A stretch of 64,000 nt of DNA from Maribacter algarum (ex Lu et al. 2025) (nom. illeg.) (lineage in GTDB: Bacteria > Bacteroidota > Bacteroidia > Flavobacteriales > Flavobacteriaceae), in assembly GCA_947495915.1 (NCBI GenBank), contig CANMAW010000001.1:806001-870000 (forward strand), written 5' to 3'. A program made the translations under genes and the position numbers. The notes beneath the pieces are model-generated. The model saw only the letters and a list, made by a program, of their open reading frames with translations, did not search any database and was not told the DNA's origin. Of this stretch, positions 9,149 to 26,367 are shown one piece after another (the first letter of the stretch is position 1; each line of letters begins with the position of its first letter).

Positions 9149-10570
9149 TTATCGCCATCCACCGCCAAGGGCTTCATAAAGATCTACTACAGATACCAGT
9201 TGTTGCAACTGACTATCAATGATATTAAGTTCAGCACTTAATGCACTTTCACGAGCAGTCAGTAGATCTAAGTAATTGGCATAACCATTTTTAAGCAACT
9301 CTTCAGAGTTTGCTTCAGCGGTACGCAATGCTTCCACTTCATTTTTTCTAAATTCAAACTTCTTGGTTTCAGCTTCATAGGAGTATAACGCATTTGATAC
9401 TTCACTACCTGCAACTAATAAGGTCTGTTTGAACTGTAATAAAGCCTGTTCTTGTTGCGCAAGAGCCACCTCTTTTTGAGTTCTTAATTTACGCTGATTA
9501 AACAAAGGTTGAGTTAAGCCCCCAATTACCGTAGCAAACAGCGAATTGGCATCTAATAATTCATCAATATCTAAGCTCTGAAATCCACCAGATGCTGTTA
9601 ATGTCAACGATGGATATAAGTTGCTTTTTGCCACATTAGTTAATTCAAAAGACTGAATCAAACCATATTCGGCTTGCATTACATCAGGTCTATTACTCAA
9701 CAATTTTGCAGGCACACCAAGTACGATATCTTCTTGAAAACGCTGTACCTCTAAACTACTACGTTCAAAAGTCTGAGGTGCTTTTCCTAACAATATGCTT
9801 AGTGTATTTTCGGTTTTAAAAATTGCAATTTCAATATCAACTTGTAAAGCTTTTGCACTATTGTATTGGGCGATATTTTGATCAACAGCCACCTGAGTAA
9901 CTTGACCAGCATCTTTCAGAGCTTTAATCGTGGAAACACTACTATCTCTAGTAATGATGGTTTGCTTTGTTACTTCTAGCTGAGCATCTAAAGCCAACAA
10001 ATTGTAATAGGTGTTGGCAATACTAGAAATCAATTGTGTTTTCACTGCTTGGTGTCCTGATACACTTTGTAAATAGGCTGCTTGCGTTGCTCTTTTATTG
10101 CTTCTAATTTTTCCCCAGATATCAGCTTCCCACGACAAGTTTGCTGTGATGTCAAACTGATCTGTTGAAGTATCACTTAAAAACGCACCAAACTGTGAGT
10201 TTTTCGATAACTCTTGATGCGTCCAATTGGTACCAACATCAACAGCTGGCAAATACCCAGCTTTGCCTTGTTTGGCATAAGCCTCTGCAGCAATAATTTG
10301 CTGTAATGCGATGCGAACATCCATATTATTTTGCAACCCTTCATTGATATAATTCTGAAGATATTGGTCTGTAAATAGGGTTTTCCAAGACACATCTGCA
10401 ATTGACACACTATCGGTCGGCAAATTTTCCGTTCGGTATAGTGCTTCGGTTTCTGCTTCAAATTCTGGTCTCACATAATCTTGAGCAACAAAACAACTTT
10501 GTAAGGTTAAAGCAATACCCAGCACGAATGCTGCACTGCTAAAATTTCTATGTTTTATAATACGTTTCAT
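9149..10570 (-). CDS. RND efflux outer membrane factor (TolC/OprM-like lipoprotein)
   Basis: 473 residues with a signal peptide and lipobox (TLQSC; Cys at about 26), then a NodT/OprM-type outer-membrane factor. The body is two repeats of long alpha-helical segments plus strands forming the trimeric channel-tunnel, with the usual SNRPDV(M)QAE motif at the start of the second repeat and an N-terminal RPEF-like segment. It provides the exit duct through which the pump expels substrates. The start codon is 5 bp downstream of the pump stop codon on the minus strand, so the genes are co-transcribed. It is the last gene of the efflux operon. Confidence 0.93.
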   Translation of the reverse strand: MKRIIKHRNFSSAAFVLGIALTLQSCFVAQDYVRPEFEAETEALYRTENLPTDSVSIADVSWKTLFTDQYLQNYINEGLQNNMDVRIALQQIIAAEAYAKQGKAGYLPAVDVGTNWTHQELSKNSQFGAFLSDTSTDQFDITANLSWEADIWGKIRSNKRATQAAYLQSVSGHQAVKTQLISSIANTYYNLLALDAQLEVTKQTIITRDSSVSTIKALKDAGQVTQVAVDQNIAQYNSAKALQVDIEIAIFKTENTLSILLGKAPQTFERSSLEVQRFQEDIVLGVPAKLLSNRPDVMQAEYGLIQSFELTNVAKSNLYPSLTLTASGGFQSLDIDELLDANSLFATVIGGLTQPLFNQRKLRTQKEVALAQQEQALLQFKQTLLVAGSEVSNALYSYEAETKKFEFRKNEVEALRTAEANSEELLKNGYANYLDLLTARESALSAELNIIDSQLQQLVSVVDLYEALGGGWR

Positions 10571-10575
10571 TTTTC

Positions 10576-13500
10576 TTATGCTTCAATTATTTGTTCTTCT
10601 GGTGTACTCGAAACTTTTTCTTGTAACCATTGAAATAGTATAAAAAGGATTGGGATTACAAATACCCCTAAAAGGGTTCCGATTAACATTCCCCCTGCGG
10701 CTCCGGTACCAATTGCGTTATTACCTTCGGCACCAACTCCATTTGCTAACACCAGTGGCAATAACCCTAAAATAAAGGCAAAAGAAGTCATTAAAATTGG
10801 TCGTAATCTTGATTTTGCTCCGTCAATAGCGGCATCAACAATTGACTCCCCGGCTTTTCGTCGCTGCAGAGCAAATTCTACAATCAGAATAGCATTTTTC
10901 GCAAGTAGCCCGACCAGCATGATCAATGCAATTTGAAAATAGATGTTGTTTTCTAAGCCGAAAAACTTTGTACTTATATAAGCTCCGAATACCCCAAACG
11001 GTAATGATAATACTACGGCAAATGGCAACAAATAGCTTTCATATTGTGCACTTAATAAGAAATACACAAACAGAATACTTAGAATAAAAATGAAGGTGGT
11101 TTGATTACCTGCATTTACTTCCTCTCGTGTTAAACCAGAGTACGCTACGGTATAGTTACTCGGTAGCTTTGCTACTTCTTCTTCGATAACACGAATCGCA
11201 TCACCTGTACTATATCCGTCATTGGTTGCCCCAGTAATATTCGTAGAATTAAATAAGTTAAAACGAGTTACCAATTGTGGCCCATATACACGCTTTAAAG
11301 TGACAAATTGTGTAATTGGGGTCATTTCTCCAGTATCAGTTCGCACATACATACTGTTTAATGCATTCTCATCGGCTCGATCTTCTGGTAGTGCTTGAAT
11401 ATAGACCCTAAATTGTTTTCCGAATCTAGAGAAATCAGAAGCATAAATTCCACCGATATACCCTTGTAATGTTGAAAAGATACTCGTTATAGAAACCCCT
11501 TTTTCTTTGGCTAAGGGCACGTTTACTTCCATTTCATATTGTGGATAATTCGTGCTAAAAGATGAGGTTGCATATTTGATTTCAGGATGACTCATTAATG
11601 CCATAGAGAAATCTTTATTCGCCTGGTCAAGATCGGCAAATTCACCTCCAAATTTGTCTAATAAATTCACTTCAAAACCTGCGGAGTTACCAAATCCACG
11701 TATACTAGGTGGTGAGAAGAATATAATATTCGCATCAGGTATGGTCGCTGCGATGCCAAATAATTTACCAGTTATAGCTGCCGCAGAAAGTGAAGGGTCT
11801 TCACGATCGCCCCAATCTTCAAGTTTTATAATTCCGAATCCGAAGTTACTACCTGCACCACTAATTAAACTTCGACCTTTTATGAAGTTAACGGCTGCGA
11901 TGCCTTCTACATCTTGAATTTTATCATAGAGTTTTCTTGCTACTGCATCGGTTCTATCTAGCGAAGCCCCTGGTGGTAACTCTATATTTGCAAACACAAT
12001 ACCTCTATCTTCATCTGGTACGAATCCTGTTGGAGTAGTGGTAGATGCCCAATAAATTCCTGCACCAGCAATTACTAAAAGTAAAACAGAAACAAATTTT
12101 CTTTTGTATAAGAATTGAAGGGACTTACCATACCTTTCTATCGTTGCGTTAAATCCGCGATTGAATAGGGTATAAAATCGTTGTAGTGGGTTTTTACTTT
12201 TTAATTCCTCATCATCTTGATGTGGTTTCAGTAATAGTGCACATAAAGCCGGACTTAACGTAAGGGCGTTCACTGCAGAAATAAGAATAGCAATAATTAA
12301 GGTAACACCAAACTGCTCATAAAATACCCCAGTCGGACCTGTAATAAAAGTCACCGGTATAAACACTGCTGCCATCACTAAGGTGATTGATATAATAGCT
12401 CCTGAAATTTCGTTCATGGCTGTTATAGTTGCCTTTTTAGGACTTTTTTCACCGTCATCAAGTTTCGCATGTACCGCTTCTACAACTACAATGGCATCAT
12501 CTACTACAATACCAATTGCAAGTACTAAGGCAAAGAGGGTTAAAAGGTTAATCGAATACCCGAAGACGTTTAAAAAGAAGAACGTACCAATAATGGATAC
12601 AGGCACTGCGATTGCCGGAATTAAGGTTGAACGAAAGTCTTGTAAGAAGATAAACACCACTAAAAACACCAATAAAAATGCTTCCAATAAGGTACTTACC
12701 ACCTTTTCAATTGATGCGTTTAAGAATAAACTGGTATCATAAGGAATAAAGATATCTAGGCCCTCAGGCAATTCACTTTTAACTGTTTCTAGGGTTACTT
12801 TAATGTTCTCAATAATTTCTTGTGCATTAGACCCTTTGGTTTGAAAAATCCCCATAAATACTGCAGGATTTCCTAAACTCATCGCATTTGAAGAGTACGA
12901 TTGTGCATCTAATTCAATGTCTGCAACATCTTTTAATCTTAAAAACTCTCCATTTCCTAAGGCTTTAATAACAATGTCACTGTATTGGCTTTCGTTTTTA
13001 AAACGTCCGCTATAGGTTAAAGTATACGAGAATGATTCTCCATTATTTTCACCCAAAGAACCTGCTGCTGCCTCTAAGTTTTGTTCTGCTAAAGCAGCTG
13101 TAATATCAGAGGGAATTAAATTATACGCCGCTAATTTCTCCGGATTTAACCAAATACGCATGGCATAATCTTGCTGTGAGAATACACTAACATCACCCAC
13201 ACCACTAATACGTTGCATGGCCGGTATGACATTAATCTTCAAATAATTCTGAATAAAGGTCGCATCGTAGTCTTCACTTTCAGAATACATTGAAATGAAC
13301 ATCAATGCGCTCGTCTCTTGCTTTTGAGTGATTACACCGGTTTGTGTCACCTCTGAAGGTAATAGTGGTGCTGCTCTTGCCACACGGTTTTGAACGTTTA
13401 CCGCTGCAATATCAGCATCCATTTCTTGATCAAAATAAACGGTGATTGTTGCGGTACCATTGTTTGAAGCCGTAGAGGTGATATAAGTCATACCTTCTAC

Positions 13501-13713
13501 TCCATTAATTTGTTCTTCAATGGGTACAATGACACTCTCTAAAACTGTTTCTGCGTTTGCACCGGTATAACTAGCCGATACTTGTATGGTAGGAGGTGCA
13601 ATATCAGGGTATTCCTCTATGGGTAAGGTAGTTATACTAATAACGCCCAGTATAACTATGATAATAGAGATTACTGTTGAAAGAACGGGTCTTTCAATGA
13701 ATGTTTTTAACAT
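10576..13713 (-). CDS. RND multidrug efflux permease (AcrB/HAE1 family)
   Basis: 1045 residues, the full length of the hydrophobe/amphiphile efflux family. It starts with the typical MLKTFIERPVLSTVISI and has 12 predicted membrane segments with two large periplasmic loops. The proton-relay Asp pair is visible in AIGIVVDDAIVVVE in the fourth membrane segment, and the C-terminal half holds the conserved ENNIYFQIALIMLVGLLAKNAILIVEFA region. The trimer uses the proton gradient to export drugs, bile salts, dyes or solvents. It lies 22 bp after the adaptor gene and 5 bp before the outer membrane factor. Substrates cannot be predicted. Confidence 0.95.
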   Translation of the reverse strand: MLKTFIERPVLSTVISIIIVILGVISITTLPIEEYPDIAPPTIQVSASYTGANAETVLESVIVPIEEQINGVEGMTYITSTASNNGTATITVYFDQEMDADIAAVNVQNRVARAAPLLPSEVTQTGVITQKQETSALMFISMYSESEDYDATFIQNYLKINVIPAMQRISGVGDVSVFSQQDYAMRIWLNPEKLAAYNLIPSDITAALAEQNLEAAAGSLGENNGESFSYTLTYSGRFKNESQYSDIVIKALGNGEFLRLKDVADIELDAQSYSSNAMSLGNPAVFMGIFQTKGSNAQEIIENIKVTLETVKSELPEGLDIFIPYDTSLFLNASIEKVVSTLLEAFLLVFLVVFIFLQDFRSTLIPAIAVPVSIIGTFFFLNVFGYSINLLTLFALVLAIGIVVDDAIVVVEAVHAKLDDGEKSPKKATITAMNEISGAIISITLVMAAVFIPVTFITGPTGVFYEQFGVTLIIAILISAVNALTLSPALCALLLKPHQDDEELKSKNPLQRFYTLFNRGFNATIERYGKSLQFLYKRKFVSVLLLVIAGAGIYWASTTTPTGFVPDEDRGIVFANIELPPGASLDRTDAVARKLYDKIQDVEGIAAVNFIKGRSLISGAGSNFGFGIIKLEDWGDREDPSLSAAAITGKLFGIAATIPDANIIFFSPPSIRGFGNSAGFEVNLLDKFGGEFADLDQANKDFSMALMSHPEIKYATSSFSTNYPQYEMEVNVPLAKEKGVSITSIFSTLQGYIGGIYASDFSRFGKQFRVYIQALPEDRADENALNSMYVRTDTGEMTPITQFVTLKRVYGPQLVTRFNLFNSTNITGATNDGYSTGDAIRVIEEEVAKLPSNYTVAYSGLTREEVNAGNQTTFIFILSILFVYFLLSAQYESYLLPFAVVLSLPFGVFGAYISTKFFGLENNIYFQIALIMLVGLLAKNAILIVEFALQRRKAGESIVDAAIDGAKSRLRPILMTSFAFILGLLPLVLANGVGAEGNNAIGTGAAGGMLIGTLLGVFVIPILFILFQWLQEKVSSTPEEQIIEA

Positions 13714-13735
13714 GATAGATATGTTTAGAGGTTAT

Positions 13736-14866
13736 CTAATTTCTAAATAAGGTTGCTACAGGTTCTAAGGCCTCATCAAAAGAAGTTTCTTGCGGAGAAA
13801 TTGCCATTCCATTTTGTAATTTACCAATACCAGATACAATGATTTTATCGTCAATATCGATACCCGATTCAACAACGTATAAATTGTCAACGGTTCCTTG
13901 TATTTTTAATATGGATGTTTCGACTTTATTGTCAACATCTAATTTGAAAATCATAATATTTCCTTGTTGCTCAAATGTTGCTGATTGTGGTATTACGATG
14001 GCATCTTTATATTCTTCAGGAATTCGTATTGTTCCGCTATTACCATTCGTCAATATTTCATTAGGGTTGTCAAAAGCAGCTCTAATTTTAATGGTTCCAG
14101 TATTTTGATTTATTTGTCCGGTACTGGTTTGAATTCGTCCTTTTTCTGAATACAACTTGCCGTTGGCTAAGATCAAATCTAAATCTGGTGAATTCTTAAT
14201 ACGTTCTGCCTTAGTTTCACCTTCGTTTTTTTGTAAATGGTTAATGTATTGCGCTTCATTAAAACTAAAAAAAGCATACACTTGATCGATCTCACTTACT
14301 GTGGTTAATGGAATAGCGTCACTCGGACTGATTAAAGCACCTTCTCTAAAATTGATAGCGCCCACATACCCATCGATAGGGCTTTTAATAGTTGCGTAAC
14401 TAATATTGGCAGACACACTACTGTAAGTAGCTTTTGCTTGCGCTAAATTTGCCTTTGCGGTTTCAAGTTGCACCGGACTAATAATATTTTTTTCAACCAG
14501 AGGTATGAGTTTATCTACTTCTACTTGTGCAACGTTAACTAGCGCTTTAGCAGCTCCAGCATCTTGACTTAATGACTGCGTTTCTAGTTTAAAAAGTGCT
14601 TGTCCTTTACGTACTTTCTCACCTTCGTCAACAAATACTTTTTCAATATACCCTGATGTTTTGGCGCGAACATCACTATTTACAATACCTTCTATAGTGG
14701 CTGGGTATTCTGTATAGCCTGTTACTGTTTTACTTTGTATTTGAGCCACAGGAAATGCAGCTGGCGGAGCTGCTGCCGCAGCTTGTTTTTGTTCGTTGTT
14801 TCCACAACTTATTAGAGCTAAGAATAAACTTAGTGTTAGCATGGAAAATATTTTATTGTTTTTCAT
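13736..14866 (-). CDS. RND efflux periplasmic adaptor (membrane fusion protein), lipoprotein
   Basis: 376 residues with a lipoprotein signal (LALISCGNN). The order is that of AcrA-like adaptors: an N-terminal beta strand, first half of the lipoyl domain (VRAKTSGYIEKVFVDEGEKVRKGQALF), a helical hairpin (LSQDAGAAKALVNVAQVEVDK...), second half of the lipoyl domain (ATIKSPIDGYVGAINFREGALIS), and beta-barrel and membrane-proximal domains. It bridges the pump to the outer membrane factor. The gene begins 12 bp after the upstream regulator stop, so it is co-transcribed with regulator, pump and exit duct. Confidence 0.93.
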   Translation of the reverse strand: MKNNKIFSMLTLSLFLALISCGNNEQKQAAAAAPPAAFPVAQIQSKTVTGYTEYPATIEGIVNSDVRAKTSGYIEKVFVDEGEKVRKGQALFKLETQSLSQDAGAAKALVNVAQVEVDKLIPLVEKNIISPVQLETAKANLAQAKATYSSVSANISYATIKSPIDGYVGAINFREGALISPSDAIPLTTVSEIDQVYAFFSFNEAQYINHLQKNEGETKAERIKNSPDLDLILANGKLYSEKGRIQTSTGQINQNTGTIKIRAAFDNPNEILTNGNSGTIRIPEEYKDAIVIPQSATFEQQGNIMIFKLDVDNKVETSILKIQGTVDNLYVVESGIDIDDKIIVSGIGKLQNGMAISPQETSFDEALEPVATLFRN

Positions 14867-14878
14867 TTGAATTAGTAT

Positions 14879-15382
14879 TTATAAATCGAATTTTTTGTCT
14901 TGTAATTTTTTTCTTAATTCCTCAATTGAGGTTGTTGCTTCATCTATAAACTTGATGTAATCATTGTGAAAACTTAAATCAAATTTTTCTTCATTAGTAT
15001 CTATCTTTTCTAGGTTTATGGTATTCTTATAAGCTTTTATTTCTAGATGCAAGGTTCGTACCTCTTCCCATTCTTTAATGACTTTATCGATATGATGTAT
15101 CACGGAATCTTTATTGATGATGAAGTATTTCTTTCGATCTCCGGTTTTGGTGAAATACTCAATTTTCTTTAAGTCTTGTAAATGATTTAGATGCGTTGAA
15201 ATTGTACTTTTACTTGCACAAAGTACCGCTACCATTTCTTCAAAAGTTGCTCCCTTTTTACCTGTTAGTATAACATAAGCAAGAATTCTCGCTGCTACAG
15301 GAGCCAAATTTTCTCTTTTCTCTAAATGCACACCTAGTTTTTCTACAAGGGCCATTTTTACTTGACATATATTTTCTTTCAT
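14879..15382 (-). CDS. GbsR/MarR-like winged-helix repressor of the efflux operon
   Basis: 167 residues. Residues 20-95 form a winged helix of the GbsR/MarR type (PVAARILAYVILTGKKGATFEEMVAVLCASKSTISTHLNHLQ is the helix-turn-helix region, followed by a wing with KTGDRKKYF), and the C-terminal third is a helical dimer segment. It is the first gene of the operon, 12 bp before the adaptor gene, a common layout for a ligand-sensing local repressor. An 11-bp-arm inverted repeat at 15451-15478 lies in its promoter region and is the best operator candidate. The inducing ligand is unknown. Confidence 0.85.
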   Translation of the reverse strand: MKENICQVKMALVEKLGVHLEKRENLAPVAARILAYVILTGKKGATFEEMVAVLCASKSTISTHLNHLQDLKKIEYFTKTGDRKKYFIINKDSVIHHIDKVIKEWEEVRTLHLEIKAYKNTINLEKIDTNEEKFDLSFHNDYIKFIDEATTSIEELRKKLQDKKFDL

Positions 15383-15636: not shown

Positions 15637-16677
15637 TCAGTTCATCTTTCTTAATAAATACAAATACACCGGAAAATGATCAGAGTAACCCCCAACGTAA
15701 CTACCCCCGGCATAGGTTCGCAAGGGGTAACCTTTATATCTTCCAAAAGAATCTATTAGGTAGTTCGGCCGAAACACATTGGCTTTCCAAAAAGAATACG
15801 TCTCCTTTTTATCAGATATTAAATTCTGGGTAAAATATAGTTGGTCAAACAAATTCCATTTGTCTCGATAGGCTAAAGAACCAATACCTTTACGAAACAT
15901 CTTCTCCATAGGATTATATAAATTCAACGAATCTAATTCTTTTGTTTTTCCTTTTGTCTTTAGTATTTTTTGAAAGCTGTCATTTATTGGGTCGTCATTA
16001 AAATCACCCATGCTAATTATTTTAGCTTCACGATCTATATATTGAATCGAGTCAATAATTCGTTTGTTTAGTTGTGCAGCAGCTATTCTGTTAGGTCTAC
16101 TTCGTGCTTCTCCACCACTTCTAGAGGGCCAATGATTGACAATGAAATGAAAATATTCATTGTCTAAGTATCCGCCAACAACAAGTTGGTCTCTGGTGTA
16201 ATCTCTAAACCCATCGCTATTTGTTAGCAGTAGTCGCCGACTATCAAAGGTATCTGGTATAAATACAGATTTTTTATATAATAAGGCCACATCAATACCA
16301 CGCTCGTCGGGTGAGTCAAAATGTATAATACCATATTCTTGTTGAACTAAAGGTTCGTGATTGATTAAGTCTACCAGTACTTGTTTATTTTCTATTTCGC
16401 AGAGTCCGATGATATCGGGTGCCGTTTTGCTAACATCGCGCCCTATTTCCGAAATTACTTTTGAAATTTTGTTCAGTTTACGGGCATAGCGAGTTTTTGA
16501 CCATTGATCTTTGCCATCAGGCGTACGATCGTCATCAAAAGTCAGTGAGTCATTATAAGTGTCAAATAGGTTTTCAACATTATAAAAGGCAATAGTTTTT
16601 ATTTCATACGTGTTTGGTTTTTGAGGCCATATAATAACGGGTAGAATTAGAAGTAATGTTAATAGTCTTGACCTCAT
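15637..16677 (-). CDS. Exported endonuclease/exonuclease/phosphatase family protein
   Basis: 346 residues with a signal peptide (LLTLLLILPVIIWPQ), so it acts outside the cytoplasm. The EEP catalytic set is intact: Asn in FYNVENLFD, metal-binding Glu in IGLCEIENK, HW in IVNHWPSRSGG, the MGDFNDDP motif and the C-terminal YSDHFPVY with the catalytic His. The family hydrolyses phosphodiester bonds, including DNA, RNA and some phospholipids; the sequence SRSGGEARSRPNR is also found in bacterial extracellular nucleases. It is divergent, 113 bp apart, from a TonB-dependent receptor and a DUF5689/lamin-tail lipoprotein. Nuclease activity is likely from the motifs but not proven. Confidence 0.88.
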   Translation of the reverse strand: MRSRLLTLLLILPVIIWPQKPNTYEIKTIAFYNVENLFDTYNDSLTFDDDRTPDGKDQWSKTRYARKLNKISKVISEIGRDVSKTAPDIIGLCEIENKQVLVDLINHEPLVQQEYGIIHFDSPDERGIDVALLYKKSVFIPDTFDSRRLLLTNSDGFRDYTRDQLVVGGYLDNEYFHFIVNHWPSRSGGEARSRPNRIAAAQLNKRIIDSIQYIDREAKIISMGDFNDDPINDSFQKILKTKGKTKELDSLNLYNPMEKMFRKGIGSLAYRDKWNLFDQLYFTQNLISDKKETYSFWKANVFRPNYLIDSFGRYKGYPLRTYAGGSYVGGYSDHFPVYLYLLRKMN

Positions 16678-16790
16678 AGCGCTTTGTCAAATTACTTATT
16701 AATTTTAATTTTTATAAGATTTTTCTCATAAAATAGTAAGTTTATTTATATATTTCTGAATTGTCTTGACAAAACTACTAACCAACCAAA

Positions 16791-19520
16791 ATGTCATACG
16801 TGCTGTTTTTATCCTTTTTTATGCACTTTTATGGGGTTGCTGATGTACAGGAAAGTGGCTCTATAAAAGCAAGGGTTGTAAATGCCAGAAATAGCGATGC
16901 ATTAACCAATGCTGTAATTTATTTAGAAGGATATGACCATAAAACAACCACTAGTACCGAAGGTACATTCCAAATAAATGAGGTAGCAAAGGGTCAGTAT
17001 ATTTTAAATATTTCTAAGGATGATTTTAGTACCAAACGAATTCCCATTTCCATTGGTAATACCCAATTAGATTTGGGAAAAATCTTGCTTGAAGAAGATT
17101 TTAAAATAGCGTTGAAGGATAACTTAATCACGCTAACCGATGCCGAATTGTTTGATGATGAGGTCAGTTCATCTTCTACAGGTTTGTTGCAAGCAACCAA
17201 AGATATTTTTCTAAATAGAGCTGCTTTTGATTTCGGACAAGCTTTTTTTAGAGTGCGAGGGTATGACGCCAAACATGGTAAGATTTTGGTCAATGGCATT
17301 CCAATGAATAAATTCTATGATGGCCGGCCACAATGGAATAATTGGGGCGGACTTAATGATGCCACTAGAAGTCAACAATTCACCCTGGGCTTAGCATCTT
17401 CAAACTACGCTTTTGGCGGAATTTTAGGTACTACTAATATTGATATGAGTCCGTCTGCATTACGACCAGGCACCAAGATGTCTGCCTCCATTTCAAACCG
17501 AACTTATGCGAATCGATTGATGTTTACACATACATCTTCTAATTCTAAAAATAATTTGACCTACAGTTTTTCAGCATCTAGAAGGTGGGCAAAACAAGGG
17601 TATATTGAAGGTACTTTGTATGATGCTTTTTCAATTTATAGTGCTGTAGCCGTGCAACTTAATGAAGCAAATAATATTCAATTTACAGGTGTCTACGCTT
17701 CTAACAGAAGAGGTCGTTCGTCTGCCATAACTGAAGAAGTATTTGACCTCGTCGGAAAGAAATACAATCCGTATTGGGGTGAACAAGATGATAAGATTAG
17801 AAATTCAAGAGAACGAAAAATAGCAGAGCCTCTTCTAATACTGAACCATAAGTACACCACCGAAAAATTCAAGTTACAAACCGGTCTGGCATATCAATTT
17901 GGAATTAATGCTAGAAGCAGATTGGGGTATTATAATGCTCCAAATCCTGACCCTACATACTATCGCTATTTACCGAGCTTCTATATAAACAGCGCTATAG
18001 GCGCAAATTTTATTGGTGCGAATACTGCTAGAGAAGGGTTTTTGAAGAATCCGCAGTTGAATTGGTCTCAAATATATCTAGCAAACCAGCAAGAAAAAGC
18101 CGCTTATGTGCTTTACGATGACGTTGTTGATAATCATCGATTCATGATAAATAGTATTGCAAATATGAAGCTTTCTTCAAACATGGCCCTCGATTTTGGC
18201 GCTGGTTATTCACAACTCAATTCTAATAATTATGCAAAGATTAGCGATTTACTAGGTGCTACATTTCATGAAGATATAGATCCCTTTTCTAATACTAAGA
18301 ACGATACTAATGGAGTGCAGCAAAAATTTAAGGGCAACATTTTTAATTATAACTATGAAATTTCGGCATCAGAATTTGAAGCATTTGCGCAAATGAACTA
18401 TGCCAAAAAATCATGGGAGGCATTTATAGCTGGCAGCTTTAAAAATACAAGCTATGAACGAAATGGGATTTTTAAAAATGAACGATATATTGAAAATTCT
18501 CTAGGACGAAGTAGTATTATAAAATTTGACAATTGGAGTTTTAAGACCGGGTCTAGATATCATTTCAATGGAAGACATTCTTTAGCAATTAACGGGGCAA
18601 TACAGCATACTCCGCCGGTGCTACAAAATGTATTTATAAATCCTAGAGAGAATAATCAAGAAGTCAATAATCTTCAAAATGAAAAGACAACAACCTTCGA
18701 TTTAAATTACAACCTAAGGCTTTCGAAATTGGTGGGTCGATTAACAGGATATTACACCCGATTTCAAGATGCTACCGATGTAAATTTCTTTTTTGTGGAC
18801 TCGGGAGTCGGGTCTGATTTTGTGCAAGAAGTACTTACCGATTTAGATTATTTACATCTTGGTTTAGAACTCGGCTTAGAATATCAATTATCATCAACGG
18901 TTCAGTTAACTGGGGTGGCTGCTATTGGCAAACATGTGTATGCAAGCAACCCTAATGTGGCTATAAATTTTGATACGGCTGGTGCTGAAGAAGAGCTTAT
19001 ACATCCGTTAGGAACCATTGATTTAGGGCCTGCATATTTGAAAAATTATAAACGTGCTCAAGGCCCGCAGCAAGCCTATGCATTGGGTGTGAACTATCGA
19101 GATCCAAAATATTGGTGGATTGGTGTTACTGCGAATTACCTGACAGCAAACTACGCCAATGTTTCATCAATTACGAGAACCTCAAGTTTTTATGTTAATC
19201 CTGAAACGGGCGTGCCTTTTCCTGATGCAACAGATGAGAATGTTAACACATTGTTACGGCAAGACCCGCTAGATAGTTTTTACTTATTGAATCTTGTAGG
19301 AGGTAAATCATGGTTAAAAAAAGGAAAGTACATCAGCATTTTCGCAAGTATTAACAATGCCTTTGATGCCGTTTACCGCACGGGAGGGTATGAGCAAAGC
19401 AGGAATGGAAATTTTGGGCAGCTTAGGAATGATAATTTAAGTGGAACGCCTTCGTTTGCGCCCAAATTTTGGTATGGTTATGGTCGAACCTATTTTGTGA
19501 ACCTGGCATTTAGTTTTTGA
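16791..19520 (+). CDS. TonB-dependent receptor with carboxypeptidase regulatory-like domain
   Basis: 909 residues. A signal peptide is followed by a carboxypeptidase-D regulatory-like beta domain (about 25-95; SIKARVVNARNSDALTNAVIYLEG), a plug domain (about 130-240, with FFRVRGYDAKHGKILVNGIPM) and a 22-strand barrel ending in an aromatic residue (VNLAFSF), the usual outer-membrane insertion signal. It should import a bulky ligand across the outer membrane using TonB. No SusD partner follows; instead the stop codon is 4 bp before a DUF5689/lamin-tail lipoprotein that probably takes the surface-binding role. Divergent neighbour is an exported nuclease-like enzyme, so nucleic acid or its fragments is the suggested ligand (inference). 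Confidence 0.9.
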   Translation: MSYVLFLSFFMHFYGVADVQESGSIKARVVNARNSDALTNAVIYLEGYDHKTTTSTEGTFQINEVAKGQYILNISKDDFSTKRIPISIGNTQLDLGKILLEEDFKIALKDNLITLTDAELFDDEVSSSSTGLLQATKDIFLNRAAFDFGQAFFRVRGYDAKHGKILVNGIPMNKFYDGRPQWNNWGGLNDATRSQQFTLGLASSNYAFGGILGTTNIDMSPSALRPGTKMSASISNRTYANRLMFTHTSSNSKNNLTYSFSASRRWAKQGYIEGTLYDAFSIYSAVAVQLNEANNIQFTGVYASNRRGRSSAITEEVFDLVGKKYNPYWGEQDDKIRNSRERKIAEPLLILNHKYTTEKFKLQTGLAYQFGINARSRLGYYNAPNPDPTYYRYLPSFYINSAIGANFIGANTAREGFLKNPQLNWSQIYLANQQEKAAYVLYDDVVDNHRFMINSIANMKLSSNMALDFGAGYSQLNSNNYAKISDLLGATFHEDIDPFSNTKNDTNGVQQKFKGNIFNYNYEISASEFEAFAQMNYAKKSWEAFIAGSFKNTSYERNGIFKNERYIENSLGRSSIIKFDNWSFKTGSRYHFNGRHSLAINGAIQHTPPVLQNVFINPRENNQEVNNLQNEKTTTFDLNYNLRLSKLVGRLTGYYTRFQDATDVNFFFVDSGVGSDFVQEVLTDLDYLHLGLELGLEYQLSSTVQLTGVAAIGKHVYASNPNVAINFDTAGAEEELIHPLGTIDLGPAYLKNYKRAQGPQQAYALGVNYRDPKYWWIGVTANYLTANYANVSSITRTSSFYVNPETGVPFPDATDENVNTLLRQDPLDSFYLLNLVGGKSWLKKGKYISIFASINNAFDAVYRTGGYEQSRNGNFGQLRNDNLSGTPSFAPKFWYGYGRTYFVNLAFSF

Positions 19521-19524
19521 ACTT

Positions 19525-20886
19525 ATGAAAACACTCGGCTGCCTTATAATCATATTACAATTGATATTTATGAATTCTTGCGTGAGCGATAAGAGGTTCG
19601 ATATCATTGAAAAAAGATGTGATAATTCATTGTCAAAAAACGCCACGTATGCAGAAATAAAAGAGATGTTCAAAGGTGTGACCCTACAAATACAGGAAGA
19701 CTTGATTATTGAAGGGTATATAAATTCTTCCGATGAACAAGGTAATTTTTTTGGTGTGTTGCATTTTCAAGATAAACCGATAAATCCTACAGCGGGTTTT
19801 CAAATCGAAATTGATGTTCGCGATTCGCATTTATTTTATCCCGAAGGAAGTAAAATATACATCAAGTTGAAAGACCTTTACTTGGGTAAAAGTAAAGGCG
19901 CTTATAAAATAGGAGGTGCTTTTAGTGCTTTCGGAAATGTTTCTGTAGGACGCTTACCTTCGGCCATTGTAAGTGAACATGTAATTTTAGCATGTGAAGA
20001 AAATAGTGCTATTGAGCCAGATATAGTTTCCATTAAAAACCTGCAACAAAAGCACATTAATGCGCTAATTCGCCTTGATTCTATACAGTTTACTGAAGAA
20101 GATATTGATTTGCCATACGCCATTCAAGAAGAACAAACAGAACGATTTTTAGAACAATGTAATGGTGATGAAATTGTATTGTTGAACAGTGGCTATTCTG
20201 ATTTTTACGAAGCCGTTTTACCAAGCAAGAATGGATCGATAACAGGTATATTAACTCGAGATAATCAAGATTATAAATTGGTGATTCGATCAACCAATGA
20301 CATTCAGTTTTATAATGAACGATGCAATACAGTACCCGAAAAAATGACGACGAACAGTGTATTCATTTCAGAAATTGCTGATCCAAATAACAATGCTGCA
20401 GCACGATTTGTTGAGTTGTATAATGCCTCTGAAAATATACTGTATTTGAATGGATGGCAATTACAACGCTTTACCAATGCAAGTTTAGAAGTAAGTTCAT
20501 CGATTGACTTAACGAGAGTTGTAATTCCTCCAGAAAGTACATTTGTAATTTCCCCAAATGCCACTGAATTCGAGATTGTTTATGGTTTTCAACCGAATAT
20601 GGGGGTAGACCTAAATTCTCCTGCAGACTCTAATGGTGATGATAATTTAGTATTAGTAGATCCTTTCCAAACCATTATTGATGTTTTTGGGGTGGTTGGT
20701 GAAGATGGCACAGGTACTAATCATGAATTTGAAGATGGTAGGGCGGTTAGAAATGTAAAAATCAAAGCAGCTAATGCACAATTCAAATTTGATGAGTGGC
20801 GTATTTTTAATGATACTGGTGGTGAGCAAACCATGAATGTACCACAGAATGCACCAGACGATTTTACACCTGGTATACGAAATTGA
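19525..20886 (+). CDS. Surface lipoprotein with DUF5689 and lamin-tail domain
   Basis: 453 residues with a lipoprotein signal (LIFMNSC; Cys19). Residues about 35-265 are a DUF5689 domain (EIKEMFKG...IEGYINSSDEQGNFFGVLHFQD), a Bacteroidota family often paired with TonB receptors. Residues about 275-450 are a lamin-tail (LTD) domain: VFISEIADPNNNAAARFVELYNASE, LNGWQLQRF, and a negatively charged loop DSNGDDN. LTDs are found in bacterial extracellular nucleases of the ExeM type, joined there to an EEP domain; here the two are in separate proteins encoded back-to-back. The gene starts 4 bp after the receptor stop, so both are co-transcribed and probably form one outer-membrane complex. Confidence 0.85.
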   Translation: MKTLGCLIIILQLIFMNSCVSDKRFDIIEKRCDNSLSKNATYAEIKEMFKGVTLQIQEDLIIEGYINSSDEQGNFFGVLHFQDKPINPTAGFQIEIDVRDSHLFYPEGSKIYIKLKDLYLGKSKGAYKIGGAFSAFGNVSVGRLPSAIVSEHVILACEENSAIEPDIVSIKNLQQKHINALIRLDSIQFTEEDIDLPYAIQEEQTERFLEQCNGDEIVLLNSGYSDFYEAVLPSKNGSITGILTRDNQDYKLVIRSTNDIQFYNERCNTVPEKMTTNSVFISEIADPNNNAAARFVELYNASENILYLNGWQLQRFTNASLEVSSSIDLTRVVIPPESTFVISPNATEFEIVYGFQPNMGVDLNSPADSNGDDNLVLVDPFQTIIDVFGVVGEDGTGTNHEFEDGRAVRNVKIKAANAQFKFDEWRIFNDTGGEQTMNVPQNAPDDFTPGIRN

Positions 20887-20892
20887 ATGAAG

Positions 20893-21246
20893 CTATTCTT
20901 GAGATAGGAATTCTTGCCATCCGATGATGGCAGAATTACCGTTTTGGTAGGCATGATACGAATGGTACAATAATTCTTTTTTTAAATCGAGAACTACAGG
21001 CCACGTAATATCATCCCAGCCTTGACCTAAAAGTTTATTGATGCCTGTTTCTACAAGTACTTCAGTAACGGCACCCATGATTCGTATAGATTCATTTCCG
21101 TTTTTATTTGAAAGCCCAATATAATAATCGGCCTTTGCACCTGAAAAAGAACATTTGGGGAAAGTTCTTATCTGAAAATCAGATAAATCAATAATGGTTT
21201 GGTCATGCGGTGTTAGCTCATGTTTGGTTTTAGAAGCTATTTGCAT
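20893..21246 (-). CDS. Hypothetical small cytoplasmic protein
   Basis: 117 residues, no signal peptide or membrane segment, no recognised family. Composition is mixed, with a middle section rich in conserved-looking Gly and small hydrophobic residues (RIMGAVTEVLVETGINKLLGQG) and a Trp-rich tail (GWDDITWPVV, IIGWQEFL). It is convergent with the lamin-tail lipoprotein gene, 6 bp apart, and transcribed alone, with about 165 bp to the response-regulator gene. Reading frame is clean, so a real gene is likely, but no function can be offered. Confidence 0.6.
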   Translation of the reverse strand: MQIASKTKHELTPHDQTIIDLSDFQIRTFPKCSFSGAKADYYIGLSNKNGNESIRIMGAVTEVLVETGINKLLGQGWDDITWPVVLDLKKELLYHSYHAYQNGNSAIIGWQEFLSQE

Positions 21247-21410: not shown

Positions 21411-21818
21411 TTATGCAATAGCAATATTTGCTAGAACGCTCTCTAAATCTTGAGGCGATACTGGTTTTAGAATATACTTGTGTATAATATTATAGTCTTG
21501 AACCTTTTGCAAATCTCTGGGATCTACAGAAGAGCTAACAATATATATCACCACTTTTTCTCTTTTTTGAATAGGTATTTTTACAAAATCTTCTAAAAAC
21601 TCCCATCCTGTCATGAGTGGCATATTGAGGTCAAGAAAGATAATATCAGGTAAATCTTTATCTTGATTAGAAAGTTCAAGAAGACCATCAATGGCATCTT
21701 GCCCATTATTATATACTAAAATTTCATTCGAGAAATTTGATTCTTTCATGATGCGTTTGGTGCCGTAAATGAATATTGGGTCGTCATCAATAATACAGGT
21801 GCTATTTACTTTTTTCAT
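21411..21818 (-). CDS. Stand-alone response regulator receiver (CheY-like)
   Basis: 135 residues, only a receiver domain. The acidic pocket is Asp11-Asp12-Asp13, the phosphoacceptor is Asp63 in IIFLDLNMP, the switch Ser lies in VYIVSSSV and the conserved Lys in HKYILKPVSP. No output domain follows, so it relays or competes for phosphate, or acts through protein contact, as in Rcp1-like regulators of Bacteroidota and cyanobacteria. Its start codon is 11 bp after the stop of the multi-PAS kinase upstream on the same strand, so it is probably that kinase's partner; the duplicated kinase further upstream could also use it. Confidence 0.92.
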   Translation of the reverse strand: MKKVNSTCIIDDDPIFIYGTKRIMKESNFSNEILVYNNGQDAIDGLLELSNQDKDLPDIIFLDLNMPLMTGWEFLEDFVKIPIQKREKVVIYIVSSSVDPRDLQKVQDYNIIHKYILKPVSPQDLESVLANIAIA

Positions 21819-21829
21819 ACTACTATTAC

Positions 21830-24028
21830 TTATGCTTTGTCTAAAAATATTTTAAATAAGGTGCCTTTATCTACTTCACTTTCTACTGTTATTTTACCGT
21901 TAATAGCTTCAACTTGATTTTTAGTTAAAAATAAACCAATACCCTTTGCGTCTTTGTTTCGATGAAAGGTTTTATACATGCCGAATAGTTTAGCCCCATG
22001 TCTTTTTAAGTCTATACCAATACCATTGTCAGCAAAATGAATTTCTACAGTTTCTTTTACTATTTTATGAATCGAAATTGAAATTATTGGTGGTCTGTCT
22101 GGTGAACAATATTTAAGGCTATTTGTAAAAAGGTTAAGAAAAATACTATCAAGGTAAGCTGGCTTTCCTAATAACTCTAAGTCTTTTGGTATTTCAATTA
22201 TACATTCAGCTTTTTTTTCTGCCATTAAGAGTTCTAAATTCTGCTGCACATTTTTTAAAGTTGAACAAAGATTTATGTTTTTTAATTTCTCTACTGCTTC
22301 AGTTTTCACTTGAATTACTTCATTGAGGTGAAAAACTGTTTCGTTCAAACTACACGAGGCGTCGTTTAACATTCGCATCAAGTTTTCATGTTCTTCTTTA
22401 TCATTTTCTTTCTTGAGAAAACCATTTATCATTGAGAGATTTGTAGAATGAGACCGTAGGTTGTGTGAAACAATATGAGCAAAATTCATAAGGCTGTCGT
22501 TTTGCTTTTTACTAACATTTAATAGTCTATTTAACTTACGGGCATCTTTAATTCTATCAGAAATATCGACCACTTGGCCTACAATATGAGCCGTATTTCC
22601 GTCAATATCTTTTACCGAAGTTACCGCCAACAGCGTATATACAATATGTCCTTTTTTGTGATAATATCGTTTTTCAAGTTGATAGCCATCACGTTTTCCG
22701 TTAACTATCTCTTGAAACAAAACAAGGTCTTTGTTAAGATCTTCAGGATGTGTTAACTCTTGAAAGGTAAGTTTGGTAATTTCATCTTTGTCGTAGCCCA
22801 TTATTTTATTCAAGGCACTATTGGTTTTTAATAAGGTACCATCAATGGCAACAAAAGCCATACCTATATTTGAGTTTTCAAACGCTCCTTGAAATGATTC
22901 TTCACTTTTTTGTAGCAGTAGTTGTGTTGTTCGCAGTTGGGTATAATCCCAATTGGTGCCAACCATTTTTATGGCTTCTCCTTTTTTATTTCGTTGGGTG
23001 ACAGCCATCGCACGAATATACCGCACTTCTCCGCTGGGCCAAATTACTCTGAAATGGGTGTTAAATTCTTTTTCACCAGAAATGGCCATGGCGATTTCTT
23101 GATCACCTCTTTCTTTGTCGTCAGGGTGAAGGCCAGATCGCCACGCTTCATATTCACCAATAAAGTCTTCTTTCTGAATACCATATAAGCGGTACATACT
23201 ATCATCCCATACCAATTTGTTGTTGACTAGGTTATAGTCCCAAACGCCAATTAAAGATCCTGATGTTGCTATTTTTAACCGTTCAGCAGTTTCCTTATAT
23301 TTAATTTCAGCTTTCTTTTTAGCATCAATCTCTTGAAAAGTACCAACTAACCGAATACATTTTTTACCAATAAATTCGGCTTCTCCTTTGGCCCTTACCC
23401 AAGTCTCGTTTCCTTTTGCAGTAACAATTACTAACTCAGTATCCCATGATTTACCTTCGGTCATTGCAGCAGCAACCAACTTCCTTATTTTTTCTCTGTG
23501 TTCACCTGCTTTGTAAAAGTTAATACCTTGCTCTAATGTTGGGGTAAAATCATGAGGTACTTCGTGAATTTCTTTTGTAATTTTTGTCCAATAAAGCTGA
23601 TTGGAAATCATATCAACTTCCCAGCCACCAATACGAGCAACTTCTTCGGCCATATATAGTAACTCCTCTTTGCGTTTTTGAAGTGTAATATCTTCGCATA
23701 CAATGATTAAACCTCCAAGCTCATCGATTTCATTTTTCCATGGATTAATTTTCCATTTCAACCATTGAATTTGTCCATTAGAATACACAAATTTTTGGCC
23801 ATTATTAGAGTTTGATTTACCTAAAAGACAAGCTTGGTGAACCTGTTTTATTTCGATAGGCGTTTGGGGTAAAGCATCGTAATATAATTCTCCATTTAAT
23901 GATTGTTGTTTTAATCCAAATTCTGTTAGCCATGCTTTTGAATGACTAATAAACCGCATGTTACAGTCTACGATGGCCACTGCAACTGGTGAATCTTTTA
24001 TTAAATAGTTTACGGTTAAAGTTTCCAA
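21830..24028 (-). CDS. Multi-PAS sensor histidine kinase (copy 1)
   Basis: 732 residues with no membrane segment, so it is a cytoplasmic sensor. Domains in order: PAS at about 1-115, PAS/PAC at 125-240, PAS at 245-370 and PAS/PAC at 375-495, then a HisKA-like dimer segment with H-box HIVSHNLRSHSTN near 515-525 and an HATPase_c with N-box LNLFTNSLKY, G1 DNGIGID and G2 KGIGLFLTKNQ. The SHNLRSH H-box is typical of a Bacteroidota kinase subgroup. No cofactor-binding motif (haem, flavin) was clear in the PAS domains. It sits 11 bp before the receiver gene and is a tandem paralogue of the next kinase upstream. Confidence 0.92.
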   Translation of the reverse strand: METLTVNYLIKDSPVAVAIVDCNMRFISHSKAWLTEFGLKQQSLNGELYYDALPQTPIEIKQVHQACLLGKSNSNNGQKFVYSNGQIQWLKWKINPWKNEIDELGGLIIVCEDITLQKRKEELLYMAEEVARIGGWEVDMISNQLYWTKITKEIHEVPHDFTPTLEQGINFYKAGEHREKIRKLVAAAMTEGKSWDTELVIVTAKGNETWVRAKGEAEFIGKKCIRLVGTFQEIDAKKKAEIKYKETAERLKIATSGSLIGVWDYNLVNNKLVWDDSMYRLYGIQKEDFIGEYEAWRSGLHPDDKERGDQEIAMAISGEKEFNTHFRVIWPSGEVRYIRAMAVTQRNKKGEAIKMVGTNWDYTQLRTTQLLLQKSEESFQGAFENSNIGMAFVAIDGTLLKTNSALNKIMGYDKDEITKLTFQELTHPEDLNKDLVLFQEIVNGKRDGYQLEKRYYHKKGHIVYTLLAVTSVKDIDGNTAHIVGQVVDISDRIKDARKLNRLLNVSKKQNDSLMNFAHIVSHNLRSHSTNLSMINGFLKKENDKEEHENLMRMLNDASCSLNETVFHLNEVIQVKTEAVEKLKNINLCSTLKNVQQNLELLMAEKKAECIIEIPKDLELLGKPAYLDSIFLNLFTNSLKYCSPDRPPIISISIHKIVKETVEIHFADNGIGIDLKRHGAKLFGMYKTFHRNKDAKGIGLFLTKNQVEAINGKITVESEVDKGTLFKIFLDKA

Positions 24029-24061
24029 GATAGGTTTATGATAGGAGTATTAGTTTGTCAT

Positions 24062-24090
24062 TAACGTAAGAAAAACCCTATAAATTGTGT
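24062..24090 (-). promoter_or_regulatory. Conserved upstream block of kinase copy 1
   Basis: On the plus strand it reads TAACGTAAGAAAAA, then 7 bp, then AATTGTGT. The same block, one base shorter, lies upstream of kinase copy 2 at 26395-26422. It starts 33 bp upstream of the start codon. Confidence 0.45.
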
Positions 24091-24180
24091 ATTTAATTAA
24101 ATTATTTTGGTGTATTAAATTTTAAATAACACTATTTAATTTAAGGATATAACTACAATAGAAATAGAACAGTTTTAGCG

Positions 24181-26367
24181 TTATGGTTTTTCAAAAAAGA
24201 GTTTGAATAAGGTGCCTTTATTTACTTCACTTTCTATTTTGATTTTTCCGTTGATGGCTTCAATTTGATTTTTTGTAAGAAATAGACCAATACCTTTAGC
24301 ATCTTTGTTTCTGTGAAAAGTCTTATACATACCGAATACTTTATCGCCATGTCGATTTAAATCAATACCTAAACCATTATCTGAAAAATGAATTTCAACA
24401 GCATCTTTGTGAATTTCATGTATGGCAATTTTTATTTCAGGTGTTCTTTTGGGCGAACTATACTTAATACTGTTGGTAAAAAGGTTAAGAAATATACTAT
24501 CCATATAGGCTGATATTCCAAGAACATGAAGATTTTCTGGAATCTGAATAATACATTTAGCTTTTTTCTCTTCCATCAAAAGCATGAGGTTTTGTTGAAC
24601 ATTTTTCAAGGTCTCACAAATGTTGATTTTTTTCAATTTGTCAACCGCTTCTGTTTTTACTTGAATTACTTCATTCAAATGAAATACAGTATCGTTAAGA
24701 CTGGTAGATGCTTCGCCCAGCATGCGCATTAAATTGGCATGCTCTTCGGCATCATTTTCTTTCTTCAAAAAGCCATAAATCATTGATAGATTTGTGGAAT
24801 GCGAACGTAAATTATGAGAAACAATATGCGCAAAGTTTAACAAACTCTCATTTTGTTTGTTGGCAATTTTATTCAGACGGTTAAGTTTGTTGCTAGCTTT
24901 TATTTGAGACGAAATATCTACAATTTGCGCAATAAAATTGATTATTTCTCCATAAATGTCTTTTACTGCGGTTACAGCAATAAGTGCATAAACGACATGG
25001 CCATTTTTATGATAATAGCGTTTTTGAAGTTCAAAATTTTCTAAAGAGCCAGCAATAGCTTTTTTAAACATCAAACCACTTTTTTTAAGATCATCTACGT
25101 GGGTAATGTCTTTGAAATTTTTCTTTTCAAGTTCACCGGTTTCATAGCCTAATATGCGTCTTAAGCTTTTGTTCGTTTTGATCAGCTTACCTGTTAAATC
25201 AGTTAAAGCCATGCCAATGTTGGAGTTTTCAAAAGTACCTTGAAGTGATTCATCGCTTTTTTGTAATAATAACTGGGTAGTTTTTAGCTCAGTAATGTCC
25301 CAATTGGTGCCAAGAATTTCTGTAACCTTTCCTTTCTCATTTTTATAACAAACAGCAACGGTGCGTATGTATCGTAATTCTCCGTTTGGCCAAATCACAC
25401 GAAACTCGGTGTCAAAATTTATCGCTCCTGAAACGGCATCTGAAATAACCTGATCTGCTAGGTGCTTATCTTCAGGGTGTAGCACTAAATTCCATGCATC
25501 TAAAACATTGGGATAATCGTCTTTGTTTAATCCATAAAGGCGATACATTTGATCATCCCAAACCAGTGTTTTTTGCTCTAAATTATATTCCCAAATGCCA
25601 ATTTCAGAATTGTTGGTCGCTATTTTAAACAGTAATTCAAGTTTTATTTCTGCCTTTTTCTTTGCATCAATATCTTGAAAAGTACCAAATAGTCGTACAC
25701 ATTTGCCATCTATAACTTCTGCTTCACCTTTAGTGCGCACCCACAGCTCATTGCCCTTGGCGGTAATTATTTGGCATTCGGTATCCCAAGGAGTACCGTC
25801 AATCATTGCTTTTGAAACCAAGTTTGAAATACGACTTTTATGTTTTCCTTTATAATAGTTAATACCTTCTTCTAAATTTGGAATGTACTCATCGGCTTGT
25901 TCATGAATTTCTCGAGTTATTTGTGTCCAGTACACTTCATTATTTATTAAATCTACTTCCCAACCACCTATTTTAGCTACTTGTTCTGCTCTGTATAGCA
26001 GTTCATTTTCGCGTTTTTGTCTTGTAATATCTTCAAGAATAAGAATAATACCTGCCGGTAAATTGAGTTCATTTAACCAAGGGTTAATTTTCCACTTCAA
26101 CCATTGTATTTTTCCGGATGATGAGATAAATTTTTTACCCGGGTTAATGTTGGTATTTCCTTGAATACAATGATTTATTTTTTCTTTAAGTTCGTTGGGT
26201 GTCTGCGGAAGTATTTTATAGAGGTGTTCGCCAATGATACTTTTACCGTCTAAATCAAATTCAGACGTCCAGATTTTTGAATGGTTGACAAAGCATAGGT
26301 TTTTGTCAAGTACAGCTACTGGGGAGGGTGAGTCTGTAATTAGATAATTAACAGTTAAGGTCTTCAA
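24181..26367 (-). CDS. Multi-PAS sensor histidine kinase (copy 2, tandem paralogue)
   Basis: 728 residues with the same layout as the neighbouring kinase: four PAS regions to about 490, H-box HIVSHNLRSHSTN near 510-520, N-box LNLFTNSIKY, G1 DNGLGID, G2 KGIGLFLTKNQ. Both begin MxTLTVNYLI. From the H-box to IQVKTEAV the two differ at few positions, while the N-terminal PAS regions differ much more. That contrast suggests duplication followed by change of the sensory part with the output part kept, or later gene conversion of the output part. It is separated from copy 1 by 152 bp, enough for its own promoter and for a separate one for copy 1. Confidence 0.92.
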   Translation of the reverse strand: MKTLTVNYLITDSPSPVAVLDKNLCFVNHSKIWTSEFDLDGKSIIGEHLYKILPQTPNELKEKINHCIQGNTNINPGKKFISSSGKIQWLKWKINPWLNELNLPAGIILILEDITRQKRENELLYRAEQVAKIGGWEVDLINNEVYWTQITREIHEQADEYIPNLEEGINYYKGKHKSRISNLVSKAMIDGTPWDTECQIITAKGNELWVRTKGEAEVIDGKCVRLFGTFQDIDAKKKAEIKLELLFKIATNNSEIGIWEYNLEQKTLVWDDQMYRLYGLNKDDYPNVLDAWNLVLHPEDKHLADQVISDAVSGAINFDTEFRVIWPNGELRYIRTVAVCYKNEKGKVTEILGTNWDITELKTTQLLLQKSDESLQGTFENSNIGMALTDLTGKLIKTNKSLRRILGYETGELEKKNFKDITHVDDLKKSGLMFKKAIAGSLENFELQKRYYHKNGHVVYALIAVTAVKDIYGEIINFIAQIVDISSQIKASNKLNRLNKIANKQNESLLNFAHIVSHNLRSHSTNLSMIYGFLKKENDAEEHANLMRMLGEASTSLNDTVFHLNEVIQVKTEAVDKLKKINICETLKNVQQNLMLLMEEKKAKCIIQIPENLHVLGISAYMDSIFLNLFTNSIKYSSPKRTPEIKIAIHEIHKDAVEIHFSDNGLGIDLNRHGDKVFGMYKTFHRNKDAKGIGLFLTKNQIEAINGKIKIESEVNKGTLFKLFFEKP

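What the first reader, a model, noticed from the sequence alone, without database searches (positions are those of the whole stretch)
15637..20886. Split extracellular-nuclease architecture joined with a TonB receptor
In ExeM-type extracellular nucleases a lamin-tail domain and an EEP catalytic domain are in one protein. Here an exported EEP enzyme with intact active site is divergent from a TonB receptor co-transcribed with a DUF5689 + lamin-tail lipoprotein. The locus reads as a SusCD-like uptake system in which the lamin-tail protein replaces SusD and the enzyme cuts nucleic acid outside, giving phosphate, nucleosides or oligonucleotides. The role of DUF5689 is not known, so this would give it one.
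Basis: partly seen in the sequence, partly recalled or inferred. Interest (0 to 1): 0.72.

Follow-up and report, generated by a model that had tools for sequence, protein, structure and literature searches.

The report
DNA-uptake gene trio with linked nuclease
Three neighbouring genes, an outer-membrane gate, a surface protein and a DNA-cutting type of enzyme, keep together in many Bacteroidota, and because the gate and surface protein are already known to be needed for taking up DNA in a relative, the enzyme is probably a DNA-processing part of that uptake machine rather than a feeding enzyme.

Summary
The genes are as described: a Sec-exported EEP enzyme (15637-16677, -) with intact active site, divergent from a TonB-dependent receptor (TBDR, 16791-19520, +), followed 4 bp later by a DUF5689 + lamin-tail lipoprotein (19525-20886, +). 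The trio is a conserved unit: in 146 genomes of the order the TBDR orthologue occurs in 55, and the EEP is divergently adjacent in 41 of these; 5 of 7 loci outside the order keep it. TBDR-adjacent EEPs fall in one clade. Phosphate feeding is not the best reading. The pair corresponds to RA0C_RS04915/04920 of Riemerella anatipestifer, each essential for natural transformation (PMC8459023, whose authors already propose DNA binding and transport for the two). Structure prediction makes DUF5689 OB-fold-like, as many nucleic-acid binders are, although the domain is acidic. None of 20 ComEC proteins from the order matches the nuclease (Lactamase_B) domain. Proposed: a pilus-free, TonB-driven DNA importer whose EEP acts in the periplasm like EndA. 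The EEP step is inferred; feeding is not excluded. The lamin-tail domain is an exchangeable accessory; SusCD and ExeM labels fail their models.

The parts
15637..16677 (-). EEP-family enzyme (PF19580), Sec signal, predicted periplasmic; active-site positions present
   Evidence: in the TBDR-linked EEP clade
16678..16790 (.). 113-bp AT-rich divergent intergenic region between EEP and TBDR
16791..19520 (+). TonB-dependent receptor (carboxypeptidase-regulatory-like domain, weak plug match); corresponds to RA0C_RS04915 of R. anatipestifer
19525..20886 (+). lipoprotein with DUF5689 and C-terminal lamin-tail domain; corresponds to RA0C_RS04920; matches NCBIfam M949_1556 lipoprotein model (196 bits, under its cut-off of 475)
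19636..20304 (+). DUF5689 domain (residues 38-260), predicted OB-fold pair
20344..20694 (+). lamin-tail domain (residues 274-390), exchangeable accessory domain

Best explanation
The locus encodes the outer-membrane part of a pilus-free DNA-import system of the kind used for natural transformation in R. anatipestifer, together with a linked nuclease. The lipoprotein (OB-fold-like DUF5689 plus an exchangeable beta domain, here a lamin-tail domain) captures DNA at the surface. The TonB-dependent receptor passes it through the outer membrane with TonB energy. (These two steps were already proposed for Riemerella in PMC8459023.) New here: the Sec-exported EEP processes the DNA in the periplasm, nicking it or degrading the non-transforming strand, and so supplies in trans the nuclease activity that ComEC in this order seems to lack, as EndA does in pneumococcus. 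Shown elsewhere: TBDR and DUF5689 protein are essential for transformation in R. anatipestifer. Shown here: correspondence of the pair, conserved divergent trio, system-linked EEP clade, OB-like model, no Lactamase_B match in 20 ComEC. Inferred: order of steps, site and nuclease role of the EEP, and use for transformation in this organism.
Against: The DUF5689 domain is acidic (window net -13; median -4 of 143 rows), unusual for charge-driven DNA binding; Foldseek TM-scores are low (0.44 or less in the rows shown). DUF5689 is not always the neighbour: the partner in L193 and L195 has no DUF5689 match (L195 has weak OB hits), and L194, L183 and L159 have none beside the TBDR. G199 keeps the system-type EEP without the pair (L177); G185 has the pair but only a second-clade EEP (L181). 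In a Flavobacterium group the EEP lies 20-60 kb off or on another contig, and F. johnsoniae was not transformable as tested (PMC7965970 abstract). 8 of the 20 ComEC come from genomes without the strong TBDR, so the missing domain is not specific. M949_1556, which gives the lipoprotein family its name, is reported to affect antigenicity and pathogenicity (Zou 2015, title in a reference list). No EEP deletion is reported in the papers I saw. G090 is identified by gene order only.
Confidence: 0.57

Rival explanations
1. Nutrient scavenging: the trio takes up extracellular DNA or oligonucleotides for phosphate, nucleosides or nitrogen; transformation is a by-product. The EEP shortens the DNA and the TBDR imports fragments.
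For: EEP kept without the pair in G199; relatives of F. johnsoniae keep TBDR, DUF5689 and an EEP elsewhere although F. johnsoniae was not transformable as tested (PMC7965970); Flavobacterium induces TBDTs and phosphodiesterases under Pi depletion (PMC8115612); DUF5689 also occurs in much larger proteins outside this unit.
Against: Complete loss of transformation in both deletions shows that transforming DNA depends on the pair; none of the four neighbour proteins scanned is a phosphatase, nucleosidase or nucleoside transporter; the Pi-induced TBDT Fjoh_3841 is listed as orphan with pf13620, whereas three F. hydatis-type orthologues match PF13715 over cut-off and PF13620 below it or not at all, so it is probably another gene, not settled.
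Confidence: 0.27
2. The EEP is an unrelated housekeeping phosphodiesterase (for example for lipid or nucleotide turnover) that merely shares a divergent promoter with a true DNA-uptake pair.
For: Divergent rather than in the operon in nearly all loci; relocated in a Flavobacterium group, absent beside the TBDR in L185, replaced in G185; present without the pair in G199.
Against: System-linked clade, adjacency kept in more than one order, co-directional TBDR-DUF5689-EEP in L157; adjacent EEPs are more basic than non-adjacent ones (median pI 8.4 of 64 against 6.1 of 24).
Confidence: 0.15
3. TBDR and DUF5689 act indirectly: they keep the envelope or surface polysaccharide in a state that permits DNA uptake.
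For: The R. anatipestifer screen also hit envelope genes (PMC8459023 Table 1), and M949_1556 is linked to antigenicity (title seen).
Against: Loss is below detection, while the apolipoprotein acyltransferase, amidase and lysophospholipid acyltransferase hits only lower the frequency; OB-like fold; link with an EEP clade.
Confidence: 0.08

Closest known systems
RA0C_RS04915/RA0C_RS04920 natural-transformation pair of Riemerella anatipestifer (PMC8459023)
   Same: TBDR with carboxypeptidase-regulatory domain followed by a DUF5689 protein, same order; the paper also reports the two as neighbours across Flavobacteriaceae; window TBDR 33% identical to the G090 orthologue
   Different: The window's lipoprotein has a lamin-tail domain instead of the choice-of-anchor-J / DUF5017 type; the passages and sections read do not discuss the EEP; comEC is about 266 kb away in this genome
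ExeM/NucH extracellular nucleases
   Same: Lamin-tail and EEP parts occur in one system (an OB-fold in ExeM is recalled, not tested here)
   Different: Spread over two polypeptides; 39.5 bits of a 300-bit cut-off and 34 of 1300; plain Sec signal
EndA/NucA competence nucleases and the MBL domain of ComEC
   Same: Proposed role: processing incoming DNA outside the cytoplasm (PMC12455585 and PMC12236230, passages read)
   Different: Different protein family (EEP); role untested
SusCD nutrient importers
   Same: TBDR plus lipoprotein in one operon
   Different: No SusC/RagA or SusD model matches; partner is beta-rich and OB-like

Membership tests
R. anatipestifer-type transformation pair (RS04915/RS04920) | TBDR orthologue with carboxypeptidase-regulatory domain | tested here: met
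   PF13620 and PF13715 over cut-off; one strong family member in the genome, 1252 bits against 157 for the next
R. anatipestifer-type transformation pair (RS04915/RS04920) | DUF5689 protein directly downstream | tested here: met
   79 of 80 named loci have it within two ORFs, the 80th is cut by the contig end; exceptions among unnamed loci are told in the report
R. anatipestifer-type transformation pair (RS04915/RS04920) | Essential for transformation in this organism | not testable with these tools
   needs a deletion experiment
R. anatipestifer-type transformation pair (RS04915/RS04920) | Other screen genes in the genome: ComEC, DprA, HHH protein, DUF1343 protein | tested here: met
   family matches only; ComF and RecA were not searched
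ExeM/NucH nuclease | Score over the NCBIfam cut-off | tested here: not met
   39.5 bits of 300 (EEP), 34 of 1300 (LTD protein)
ExeM/NucH nuclease | LTD and EEP in one polypeptide | tested here: not met
   two divergent genes
SusCD | SusC/RagA-type TBDR model match | tested here: not met
   no such match in Pfam or NCBIfam scans
SusCD | SusD-family lipoprotein | tested here: not met
   only DUF5689 and LTD match over cut-off in Pfam; beta-rich model
EEP (DNase I-like) enzyme | Active-site motif positions | tested here: met
   motif names recalled
EEP (DNase I-like) enzyme | Nuclease activity | not testable with these tools
   other EEP enzymes act on lipids or phosphates (recalled)
OB-fold protein | OB fold in DUF5689 | tested here: met
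OB-fold protein | Binds DNA | not testable with these tools
   acidic net charge speaks against

The most novel reading that the evidence does not exclude
Bacteroidota have a pilus-free DNA import machine, old enough to occur in more than one order, in which an OB-fold surface lipoprotein (DUF5689) loads DNA into a TonB-driven receptor, and a dedicated periplasmic EEP nuclease replaces the nuclease domain missing from ComEC. The lipoprotein and EEP would be split counterparts of an ExeM-type nuclease.
Probability: 0.35. Interest if true: 0.86.

Novelty: new variant of a known kind. Interest (0 to 1): 0.62.

Why it matters
How bacteria such as Riemerella, whose transformation screen lists no pilus-type uptake gene, bring DNA across the outer membrane, and what makes the DNA single-stranded when ComEC has no nuclease domain, are open questions. 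The conserved trio names one concrete gene to test (RA0C_RS04910 and its orthologues) and gives DUF5689 a testable fold. If right, a TonB receptor would transport DNA itself.

Tried and rejected
Single-sequence searches of solved structures gave nothing for any of the three proteins. Whether Fjoh_3841, a Pi-induced TBDT, is the orthologue was not settled. ComEC presence as a co-occurrence test: all 55 TBDR genomes have ComEC, but so do 48 of the other 91, and lineage confounds it, so I do not lean on it. The second model's searches were filled by its C-terminal MAM / gingipain-adhesin-like domain and did not retest the OB part. One supposed DUF5689 partner (L183) proved to be a radical SAM protein. 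One search counts (115 of 145) and the rows hold some genomes more than once, so one search is not used as a frequency. L141 (cut) and L096 and L113 (start at the TBDR) stay in the 80.

Full report
WHAT IS THERE. The three ORFs lie at the stated coordinates. The EEP protein matches PF19580 over nearly its whole length (9e-123); the receptor matches carboxypeptidase-regulatory-like domains and, below cut-off, the TonB plug; the lipoprotein matches DUF5689 (6e-68, residues 38-260) and LTD (1e-13, residues 274-390). EEP and TBDR are divergent over 113 bp; TBDR and lipoprotein are 4 bp apart. The window is G000:C1:806001-870000 of a 4.17-Mb genome, in family f1, which I take to be Flavobacteriaceae because named members fall among f1 rows; the order is then Flavobacteriales.

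IT IS A CONSERVED UNIT. In 146 genomes of the order, drawn evenly with a 90% completeness floor, 58 had a match at 1e-40 and 55 a strong TBDR orthologue (over 500 bits). PF19580 occurs in 98 of 146 and in all 55. In 41 of the 55 the EEP lies divergently just upstream of the TBDR, 194-598 bp between match ends. Of the other 14, 11 have an EEP 12-60 kb away on the same contig and 3 on another contig; one of these 3 (G098) cannot be judged, as its TBDR ends about 200 bp from the contig end. In 80 named loci fetched by the TBDR alone, 68 have the divergent EEP, 67 have DUF5689 next and 79 within two ORFs, 67 have EEP and DUF5689; 2 loci begin at the TBDR and 1 ends in it. Twelve genomes behind such loci, among them 9 of the 10 that could be judged and lack an adjacent EEP, all have PF19580 somewhere. 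In 158 genomes across the phylum, 25 have a match at 1e-60 and 24 at 1e-100 or better, 7 of these in families f18 and f19 (same class, not the same order). Five of those 7 loci keep EEP, TBDR and DUF5689 in this arrangement, one of them with an ORF in between; one (L185) has no EEP beside it and one (L183) neither EEP nor DUF5689. In one genome of the Weeksellaceae family a second, diverged copy has TBDR, DUF5689 and EEP in one direction (L157). DUF5689 is not without exception: the partner gene in L193 and L195 has no DUF5689 match (L195 has two weak OB-type matches), and L194 and L159 have no recognised partner beside the TBDR. That TBDR and DUF5689 genes are neighbours in Flavobacteriaceae was already reported in PMC8459023 (passage); the EEP is what I add.

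THE EEP BELONGS TO THE SYSTEM. In a tree of 95 EEP rows (94 different; adjacent ones thinned at about 72% identity; the window's own present twice), all 64 TBDR-adjacent rows fall on one side of a branch (support 100/98; 71 rows), together with the co-directional one, three relocated Flavobacterium ones from TBDR-bearing genomes, two extra copies or pieces at such loci, and one (G199) from a genome without the strong TBDR. On the other side are 14 EEPs of genomes without the strong TBDR and 10 second-clade EEPs. I sampled 15 of the 43 genomes that have an EEP but no strong TBDR, the best EEP each. Exceptions against the link: G199 keeps the enzyme alone, and G185 keeps the pair with a DUF6845-type gene in the EEP's place and a second-clade EEP further off. 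13 of 14 inspected motif positions are conserved in 63-65 of 65 rows. 62 of 65 have a hydrophobic run followed by an A-x-Q-type site and 1 a lipobox-like motif, by a loose pattern; Pfam finds no domain beyond the EEP in the two scanned. That fits the periplasm better than the medium, but it is a reading of sequence.

WHAT THE PAIR DOES. A transposon screen in Riemerella anatipestifer (PMC8459023; abstract, passages and sections 17, 18, 20 read) found that markerless deletion of RA0C_RS04915 (carboxypeptidase-regulatory outer-membrane protein) or RA0C_RS04920 (DUF5689) abolishes natural transformation, and that insertion in RS04915 silences RS04920. Its authors already propose that RS04920 binds dsDNA and RS04915 passes it through the outer membrane, with an unknown step to ssDNA. 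A companion paper reports that tonBA and tonBB mutants transform less and that tonBA is not iron-starved (PMC8383284; abstract and sections 20, 21 read). With tags in steps of five this is the spacing of RS04870, RS04895, RS04915 and RS04920, so RS04910 is the EEP. The paper mentions RS04910 once, as a neighbour whose transcription did not change. A library search for the three tags finds no other paper; the listings of four further searches show no title or abstract start on this enzyme. Subscription papers and preprints are not covered.

WHY A NUCLEASE. ComEC's C-terminal metallo-beta-lactamase domain degrades the non-translocating strand; pneumococcus, whose domain is probably inactive, uses EndA, and H. 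pylori lacks both (PMC12455585, passages read). None of 20 ComEC proteins from the order matches Lactamase_B at 0.01, while E. coli YcaI does at 2e-23; 103 of 146 genomes have a ComEC, so this is a sample. Eight of the 20 are from genomes without the strong TBDR, so this shows a vacancy, not that the EEP fills it. The window's genome has ComEC, DprA, a NamZ_N/DUF1343 protein and a 297-aa HHH protein, kinds of gene named in the Riemerella screen; orthology of these was not tested.

THE FEEDING RIVAL. F. johnsoniae induces several TBDTs under Pi depletion, one of them (Fjoh_3841) annotated only with pf13620; no DUF5689 protein is in the table (PMC8115612; passages and section 14 read). Three orthologues from its relatives match PF13715 over cut-off and PF13620 below it or not at all. 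Dual use of imported DNA remains possible. F. johnsoniae was not transformable in one study (PMC7965970, abstract and section 14 read). Phosphate removal lowered transformation in R. anatipestifer and raised it in R. columbina (abstracts), so it decides nothing.

VERDICT. Observation confirmed; interpretation partly right. The pair's role and an outline model are already published; the system-linked EEP, its synteny in more than one order and the OB-like fold of DUF5689 are what this analysis adds. Each step involving the EEP is inference. On checking I lowered confidence from 0.58 to 0.57 and interest from 0.63 to 0.62, for the DUF5689 exceptions and the published model.

Noticed in passing
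window 9149-15382: What reads as a TolC-like / RND pump / membrane-fusion operon with a MarR-like regulator gene lies directly behind the EEP; in eight loci of genus mates and one near genus (L014-L021) no match to pump, fusion or regulator protein stands there, so it looks like a local insertion or rearrangement.
   Followed up: no
window 20893-21246: A 117-aa protein without Pfam match, convergent behind the lipoprotein gene, is conserved at that place in seven of those eight loci (53-67% identity).
   Followed up: no
window 21830-26367: Two tandem, visibly similar sensor-kinase-like proteins of 732 and 728 aa next to a stand-alone response regulator (21411-21818). The kinase label is read from sequence, not scanned.
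   Followed up: no
L022 4785-15838: Tandem duplication of TBDR plus DUF5689 gene, the DUF5689 proteins about 900 aa with three DUF5689 copies each.
   Followed up: partly
L180, L191, L026, L135, L138: A second EEP of another clade sits one or two ORFs behind the DUF5689 gene.
   Followed up: partly
L099, L104: Contigs of MAGs labelled Rhizobium and Candidatus Nitrotoga carry flavobacterial versions of the TBDR: probably binning errors.
   Followed up: no
L092 12818-13450, L111 12805-13413: In ten loci an extra ORF lies between TBDR and DUF5689 genes; the two scanned are ~200-aa proteins with a sub-threshold DUF5017 match.
   Followed up: partly
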